This document shows positions 47,420 to 47,766 of a stretch of 64,000 bases of DNA, piece after piece; position 1 is the stretch's first letter, and each line of letters starts with the position of its first letter. The notes under the pieces are model-generated. The model made no database searches, was not told where the DNA came from, and was given only the letters and a program-made list of their open reading frames with translations. The DNA lies in assembly GCF_012034205.1 (NCBI RefSeq), contig NZ_JAATEM010000002.1, positions 1 through 64,000 of the forward strand. Reading direction: 5' to 3'. Made by a program: the position numbers and the translations under genes. The DNA is from Streptomyces composti. Lineage in GTDB: Bacteria > Actinomycetota > Actinomycetes > Streptomycetales > Streptomycetaceae.

Positions 47420-47766
47420 GTGGGTGGCGGGCCTCGGGTGCGGTGCCGGCAGTGCGCGGCGGGCTTCGGGTCCGCGCGCTGCCGGCACCGGCCTCTCGCC
47501 GTGCCCGCCGGGACCGGATGTGCCGGATGTGAGGGACCGACCGCCCCTGGGCGGGCGGTAGTTGCATATGTTTGTCAGCGCCCGCAGCGCATGTGGATCA
47601 CTGCCAGGAGAGGGGTAGGGTCCGTGGCGTACTGTGCTTCAGCAGCAGGCCGCGCTGGGGCAGTTCAGGACCGGCCCGATGCCATCAGGCGGGCTGCCGC
47701 TACGTGGAAGGAATCGCGTGGAAGCCAACTCTCGTGACACCGGGCGTCTGCCAGCTGCCTTCCTGA
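47420..47766 (+). pseudogene. Frameshifted remnant of an endonuclease VII-type HNH gene
   Basis: Pieces of one protein are spread over two frames. Frame of 47420: VRCRQCAAG at the start and, later, DRPDAIRRAAA (about 47670-47702). Frame of 47557: SCICLSAPAAHVDHC, QERGRVRGVLCF (to about 47640) and YVEGIAWKPTLVTPGVCQLP ending at the TGA of 47764-47766. HVDHCxxxGRVRGxLC is the hallmark of the recombination endonuclease VII family (beta-beta-alpha metal nuclease). About half the expected length is missing and at least two shifts are needed. The final codons overlap the first 49 nt of prcB, which implies that an intact ancestor was translationally coupled to it. Confidence 0.75.

What the first reader, a model, noticed from the sequence alone, without database searches (positions are those of the whole stretch)
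47420..47766. Broken endonuclease VII-type gene fossil inside the Pup-proteasome operon, overlapping the prcB start
The stretch between pup and prcB encodes, in two alternating frames, VRCRQCAAG, CICLSAPAAHVDHC, GRVRGVLCF, DRPDAIRRAAA and WKPTLVTPGVCQLP, which together are a recognisable endonuclease VII family protein that can no longer be read as one. Its last 49 nt overlap prcB, so prcB translation once (or still) depended on ribosomes finishing this gene. In other Streptomyces I recall an intact gene here; its loss without harm to pup/prcB suggests it is dispensable, and its previous coupling suggests a nuclease-proteasome connection.
Basis: partly seen in the sequence, partly recalled or inferred. 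Interest (0 to 1): 0.75.

Follow-up and report, generated by a model that had tools for sequence, protein, structure and literature searches.

The report
Dead nuclease gene hiding proteasome promoter
In this Streptomyces genome a nuclease-type gene beside the proteasome genes is broken, but a short stretch of it, kept in 90 of the 92 broken copies examined across the genus, likely serves as the promoter of the proteasome gene prcB.

Summary
The fossil is real, but it is not just a fossil. Window 47554-47766 is the 3' remnant of an endonuclease VII-type (PF02945) gene; the 5' half is missing and catalytic residues are lost. In 147 Streptomyces genomes the same gene lies between pup and prcB: intact in 55, broken in 92. 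Broken copies keep one block within about 100 nt of prcB, GGTANNGTCC (90 of 92; 0.2 expected). In intact genes this block spells the HNH active site with frozen synonymous sites; scorable paralogues and other families lack it (0 of 13, 0 of 10). Best reading: the predicted prcB promoter (GTGGAT-17 nt-TAGGGT in the window) lies inside the nuclease's active-site codons, so decay spares it. Intact nuclease genes are also swapped as cassettes: hosts 97% or more identical in pup+prcB differ by 27-42% in the nuclease in 9 of 14 intact pairs, with edges at pup and prcB. A homing-type cycle would fit but is untested. No promoter activity was measured.

The parts
45443..46954 (+). dop-position gene of the Pup-ligase family (PF03136)
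   Evidence: 654 bits; the name Dop is by position
47080..47102 (+). predicted pup promoter, TTGTCGGAC-N8-TAGGGT
   Evidence: pattern NTGTCRGNN-N8-TANNNT upstream of pup in 134 of 146 genus loci
47153..47371 (+). pup
   Evidence: PF05639, 105 bits
47372..47553 (+). 5' remainder of the decayed gene; no significant likeness to the nuclease left
   Evidence: 3.9 bits at best; about 240 nt missing against intact relatives
47554..47766 (+). 3' remnant of the endonuclease VII-type gene, frame broken, stop inside prcB
   Evidence: 81 bits over 47554-47763 to a model of 77 intact relatives; PF02945 21.7-22.5 bits
47420..47737 (+). 105-aa open frame made of remnant and unrelated codons; ends 20 nt inside prcB
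   Evidence: no Pfam match
47593..47598 (+). GTGGAT, possible upstream promoter element, 17 nt before the hexamer
   Evidence: conserved in intact and decayed loci, not in near-empty ones; letters checked
47616..47621 (+). TAGGGT, predicted -10 hexamer of prcB; in intact relatives it is written by Gly-Arg-Val codons of the HNH motif
   Evidence: block GGTANNGTCC in 90 of 92 broken loci, 0.2 expected; frozen synonymous sites; letters checked
47705..47713 (+). likely ribosome-binding site of prcB (TGGAAGGAA)
   Evidence: letters; second frozen island
47718..48563 (+). prcB, likely start GTG 47718
   Evidence: PF00227, 140 bits, on the longer frame from 47634; many relatives match from residue 1 of this start
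47718..47766 (+). 49-nt overlap of the nuclease frame with prcB
48628..49380 (+). prcA-position proteasome subunit
   Evidence: PF00227, 63.6 bits

Best explanation
Between pup and prcB lies a broken endonuclease VII-type gene whose surviving 3' end holds prcB's likely ribosome-binding site and start codon and a conserved block predicted to be the prcB promoter. In intact relatives the gene runs over this block: Gly-Arg-Val codons of the HNH active site spell the TAGGGT or TAAGGT hexamer. When the nuclease decays (inferred: selection on it lapses) its 5' half is deleted and its frame lost, but the block and the prcB start region stay under selection because prcBA expression would need them. 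Shown: the remnant and its lesions, recurrent decay across the genus, retention of the block in 36 of 37 all-broken clades, frozen synonymous sites in intact genes, cassette-like swapping of intact alleles. Inferred: that the block is a promoter and that prcB depends on it. Untested: what the intact nuclease does; its exchange and loss look more like a mobile or arms-race nuclease than a proteasome part.
For: Remnant; missing 5' half. Intact 55 and broken 92 of 147; at least 22 state changes on the host tree, 10 forced by starred branches. GGTANNGTCC in 90 of 92 broken loci, 0.2 expected from shuffles; 36 of 37 all-broken clades keep it in every member. Eight of ten codons -51 to -42 use a single codon in 77 intact genes, among them GGT, AGG and GTA (17, 14, 17% of their kind in the gene). 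Controls: 0 of 13 scorable paralogues and 0 of 10 scorable nucleases of other families carry the hexamer there; 5 of 5 of other Streptomycetaceae genera do. GTGGAT 17 nt upstream in intact and decayed loci. TAGGGTC lies upstream of prcB in 8 loci of other families without a detected nuclease.
Against: No transcription start or reporter was seen. A sigma-70 consensus scan finds no promoter in 47000-47800. GTGGAT is not kept at that spacing in the 28 near-empty loci. 2 of 92 broken loci (G035, G051) lack the block. Shuffles do not remove shared descent. Most other-family loci without a nuclease have no such hexamer. The tree rests on 690 columns with modest support.
Confidence: 0.72

Rival explanations
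1. Addition rather than alternative: the intact gene is a homing-type nuclease. Intact copies would cut cassette-less pup-prcB junctions and be copied in, decay, and invade again; the promoter in the 3' end makes the insertion harmless and that end hard to delete.
For: Cassette swaps with edges at pup and prcB; 9 of 14 close intact pairs swapped while 4 of 4 close broken pairs are not; 22 changes with regain allowed against 37 losses without; phage-type nuclease family; same site in other families.
Against: No target site or cutting known. Replacement of one intact allele by another is not what homing alone predicts. Part of the nuclease distance follows the host (rank correlation 0.39, 0 of 500 permutations as high).
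Confidence: 0.27
2. The intact gene is an ordinary accessory nuclease, for defence or competition, exchanged by general recombination under selection for variety; no homing.
For: 4 of 4 intact proteins tested match PADLOC's REase_II model and the profile's best solved-structure match is the restriction enzyme Hpy99I; dN/dS median 0.27.
Against: No methyltransferase or other partner lies beside it in the window (neighbours); no activity known.
Confidence: 0.45
3. The frozen block is a different signal: an operator, the nuclease's own target, a recombination anchor, or an RNA element.
For: The freeze extends several codons past the hexamer; short arms ACGG...CCGT flank it in many loci; no sigma-70 match.
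Against: The hexamer fits TANNNT, its distance to prcB varies from 36 to 103 nt in broken loci, it persists where the nuclease is nearly gone, and Rfam shows only weak microRNA matches.
Confidence: 0.2
4. Translational coupling: an upstream frame that ends inside prcB is kept to load ribosomes on prcB.
For: The window's 105-aa frame ends inside prcB; 80 of 92 broken loci have such a frame of at least 15 codons, 69.1 expected; 41 against 25.4 for at least 60 codons.
Against: The excess is modest and decaying coding DNA is poor in stops anyway; the stops lie within prcB's own codons and the frame used changes between loci.
Confidence: 0.1
5. Sequencing error or programmed frameshift: the window's nuclease is functional.
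For: The frame alternates.
Against: About 240 nt are missing, catalytic residues are lost, and the nearest hosts are broken with their own gaps.
Confidence: 0.01

Closest known systems
Endonuclease VII family (PF02945), typified by phage T4 recombination endonuclease VII
   Same: Intact relatives match PF02945 at 82-89 bits and T4 endonuclease VII chains by profile, E 5e-9; CxxC, DH and CxxCN complete in 74 of 77.
   Different: Chromosomal, at a fixed place between pup and prcB, with further Cys-rich repeats before the HNH part and a C-terminal tail written by the prcB start; the window's own copy is dead.
Hpy99I, beta-beta-alpha-Me type II restriction endonuclease
   Same: Best solved-structure match by profile (E 1e-11 over residues 69-183) and best fold match (Foldseek E 2.5e-5).
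   Different: TM-score only 0.23 on a modest model (mean pLDDT 74.7, pTM 0.40); no methyltransferase beside it in the window; no cutting specificity known.
Free-standing homing endonucleases of the HNH type (recalled from general knowledge)
   Same: Exchange incongruent with hosts, recurrent decay, HNH nuclease.
   Different: No cut site, no transfer bias, no intron or intein shown.
Pup-proteasome gene locus of Actinobacteria
   Same: dop-like gene, pup, prcB, prcA in order.
   Different: Term searches of PMC8223512, PMC2588565 and PMC3511204 (passages only) show no occurrence of the words nuclease or endonuclease; PMC3511204 describes pup directly upstream of prcB in most actinobacteria.

Membership tests
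Endonuclease VII family (intact relatives) | PF02945 over the curated cut-off | tested here: met
   82-89 bits, cut-off 23.6, 4 of 4 tested
Endonuclease VII family (intact relatives) | zinc cysteines CxxC...CxxC and catalytic DH...N | tested here: met
   complete in 74 of 77; exceptions G026, G334, G088; residue roles recalled
Endonuclease VII family (intact relatives) | DNA cleavage | not testable with these tools
   no experiment
Endonuclease VII family (window copy) | open frame with active-site residues | tested here: not met
   5' half missing; second Cys and Asn of CxxCN and a His of DHxH lost
Homing endonuclease | cuts the empty allele and is copied into it | not testable with these tools
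   no cut site known
Homing endonuclease | gene history incongruent with host, with recurrent loss | tested here: met
   ordinary recombination would also do this
Type II restriction system | methyltransferase beside the nuclease | tested here: not met
   neighbours in the window are Pup-ligase family, pup, prcB, prcA; other loci not checked for it
Actinobacterial promoter (TANNNT class) | conserved -10 hexamer and upstream element at fixed spacing | tested here: inconclusive
   hexamer kept in 145 of 147 loci, GTGGAT at 17 nt in intact and decayed but not near-empty loci; no sigma-70 consensus
Actinobacterial promoter (TANNNT class) | transcription start downstream | not testable with these tools
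   no start-site data found

The most novel reading that the evidence does not exclude
A homing-type endonuclease VII cassette has cycled for a long time at the pup-prcB junction of Actinobacteria and, in Streptomycetaceae, fastened itself there by writing the proteasome promoter into its own active-site codons: the host can kill the nuclease but cannot delete its 3' end, which stays behind as a landing site for the next allele.
Probability: 0.27. Interest if true: 0.82.

Novelty: new variant of a known kind. Interest (0 to 1): 0.62.

Why it matters
If right, the proteasome promoter of a major bacterial genus is embedded in the catalytic codons of an unrelated nuclease, a dual-use stretch that shapes how the gene can die. 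It would explain why many pup-prcB spacers in Streptomyces look like junk with one constant piece, warn that deleting the annotated nuclease may cut prcB expression, and give a natural series of many decays to study. It also exposes a rapidly exchanged nuclease at the Pup-proteasome locus for which I found no study in the searches listed in the report.

Tried and rejected
Programmed frameshift or sequencing error: rejected, half the gene is missing. Rfam at the locus: three weak microRNA matches far below cut-off. Sigma-70 scan: nothing. PafBC-type pattern at prcB: 0 of 147, so that class was dropped for prcB. SigB-like GGGTA reading: spacing and last base fit poorly against a recalled consensus, dropped. 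Translational coupling: excess over shuffles modest. NCBIfam names no family for 4 of 4 intact proteins. A first distance test had misregistered prcB rows; it was redone with alignments, and only the latter is used. The first paralogue control recognised 5 of 21; redone (13 of 21 scorable, 8 not). The first pup-promoter pattern was too strict (9 of 146) and was loosened after seeing the sequences (134 of 146), so that count is not an independent test.

Full report
Observation. Between pup (stop 47371) and prcB (likely start GTG 47718) lies a remnant of an endonuclease VII-type gene. Pfam PF02945 matches it just below the curated cut-off (21.7 bits; 22.5 bits; cut-off 23.6). A model built from 77 intact relatives gives 81 bits over 47554-47763. 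A second frame holds a further piece (13 bits). Aligned to intact relatives, about 240 nt of the 5' half are missing and small frame-changing gaps lie in the 3' part; the second Cys and the Asn of CxxCN and a histidine of DHxH are lost from the window's frame. Its frame stop lies inside prcB, giving a 49-nt overlap.

Genus survey. I used the 150-genome genus sample. pup and prcB were found together in 147; G028, G079 and G113 were dropped. A locus counts as intact if one open frame of at least 185 aa ends at the TGA inside prcB. 55 of 147 are intact and 92 broken: 79 have a pup-prcB gap under 520 nt and 13 have a long gap but no such frame. Three of those 13 have frames of 188-194 aa that end at another stop, so the line is not perfectly sharp. 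On a host tree from pup+prcB (167 rows, 690 columns, modest support) intact and broken need at least 22 changes, 10 forced by starred branches. If loss is never reversed, 37 all-broken clades result. The window's nearest hosts in the sample, G009 and G124, are broken too, over a similar span but with their own gaps. A search of 392 genus genomes with the window's DNA found nothing closer than 90%.

What survives. In the broken loci one block stands out. GGTANNGTCC occurs in 90 of 92 within the 142 nt before the prcB overlap; 0.2 are expected from dinucleotide shuffles. Shuffles do not remove shared descent; counted by clade, 36 of 37 all-broken clades keep it in every member. The hexamer is TAGGGT, TAAGGT or TATGGT in 85 of the 90 broken loci that have it. 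In intact and decayed loci GTGGAT lies 17 nt upstream, as in the window (47593-47598 and 47616-47621). The 28 near-empty loci keep GGGTA.gGTCC and little else, without GTGGAT at that spacing; their hexamer lies 36-99 nt from prcB, against 99 nt in 51 of 55 intact loci.

Why it is not merely coding. In 77 intact genes (55 from the sample, 22 others chosen as near relatives of the window) synonymous sites are frozen at codons -51 to -42 counted from the C-terminus (T G R V R G V L C F): eight of the ten columns show one codon only, Leu is 92% one codon, and one Arg column is split CGT/CGA. The frozen codons include GGT, AGG and GTA, which are 17, 14 and 17% of their kind in this gene. HVDH just upstream is nearly frozen too, with the less common CAT and GAT codons. 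A second frozen island, -19 to 0, is the prcB ribosome-binding site, start and overlap. No such run occurs in the 5' two-thirds. Controls: the matching codons of 13 scorable paralogues (of 21) and 10 scorable nucleases at pup-prcB in other families (of 11 given) lack the hexamer; the 5 nucleases tested from other Streptomycetaceae genera (two of them in two pieces) have it. TAGGGTC also lies upstream of prcB in 8 of the 49 other-family loci with no nuclease detected. The simplest account is a prcB promoter written into the HNH codons. This is a prediction: no start was mapped, and a sigma-70 scan finds nothing.

The intact nuclease. Four intact proteins match PF02945 (82-89 bits), phage endonuclease VII families and PADLOC's REase_II model. 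By profile the best solved structures are Hpy99I (E 1e-11) and T4 endonuclease VII (E 5e-9). A 14-row model has mean pLDDT 74.7 and pTM 0.40; its prcB-overlapping tail is mostly under 50. Its best fold match is Hpy99I at E 2.5e-5 but TM-score 0.23, and T4 endonuclease VII is not among the 50 rows shown. CxxC, DH and CxxCN are complete in 74 of 77. 1210 of 50,697 phage records hold a relative, all under 60% identity. dN/dS has a median of 0.27 against 0.05 for prcB over 273 usable of 356 pairs; many pairs are swapped alleles with high dS, so the value is rough.

Cassette swapping. Nineteen genome pairs have pup+prcB at least 97% identical: 14 intact-intact, 4 broken-broken, 1 mixed. In 9 of the 14 the nuclease 5' part is only 58-73% identical, while 300 nt upstream of pup are 86-98% identical in the same nine; in the other five the nuclease is 83-97% identical. 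Some genomes appear in more than one pair. The 4 broken-broken pairs keep similar remnants (88-98%). Sliding windows show the drop starting near the end of pup and ending at prcB (14 chosen pairs). Over 54 intact genomes (1 of 55 dropped for a short flank) the rank correlation with prcB distance is 0.72 for the upstream control, 0.39 for the nuclease 5' part and 0.10 for its 3' part; the nuclease-nearest genome is also the prcB-nearest in 9 of 54, against 24 of 54 for the control. So vertical signal exists but exchange is frequent. Homing would produce this; ordinary recombination with selection for variety would as well.

Beyond Streptomyces. In 62 loci outside the family (two without a pup match) one search finds a nuclease or remnant in 13; 26 have only 23-62 nt between pup and prcB. 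A looser look flagged short weak pieces in three more. Of 20 loci from other Streptomycetaceae genera, 3 are intact in one frame and 19 keep the block.

Coupling. Open frames running into prcB are somewhat more common than in shuffles, and decaying coding DNA would show such an excess. I do not support coupling, nor exclude it.

Print. Searches for endonuclease VII with proteasome, prcB and pup and with Streptomyces (one paper, passages, on prophage genes), for SCO1645, SCO1646 (passages of one of two papers), pupylation provenance, HNH with Pup, prcB with promoter and homing with endonuclease VII (listing only) found no description of this arrangement. The library lacks most subscription journals, so earlier descriptions may exist; databases already name the protein endonuclease VII domain-containing.

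Noticed in passing
window 47080-47102 and pup upstream regions of the genus: Upstream of pup, NTGTCRGNN-N8-TANNNT occurs in 134 of 146 loci. It resembles the mycobacterial PafBC (RecA-NDp) promoter, whose consensus I recall; PMC9380542 (passage) says a motif search suggested that motif is not conserved in S. venezuelae.
   Followed up: partly
G452:C39, G425:C2, G417:C1 and others: Several Streptomyces genomes carry a second, more distant prcB-like gene (about 59-68% identity).
   Followed up: no
L001 (G000:C36:8769-8900): The window's genome has one other PF02945 match (50.4 bits) inside a 696-aa open frame.
   Followed up: no
L277, L280 (another family of the class): The nuclease at pup-prcB lies in longer open frames there (338 and 311 aa) with two overlapping matches to the model, perhaps extra zinc repeats.
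   Followed up: no
all-broken clades: Within single all-broken clades the pup-prcB gap varies widely (198-545 nt in one of 21 genomes), so deletion goes on after the break or breaks are more numerous than counted.
   Followed up: no
window 60280-60302 (+), 38750-38772 (-), 13765-13787 (-): Three more matches to the pup-promoter pattern in the window; not checked against genes or chance.
   Followed up: no
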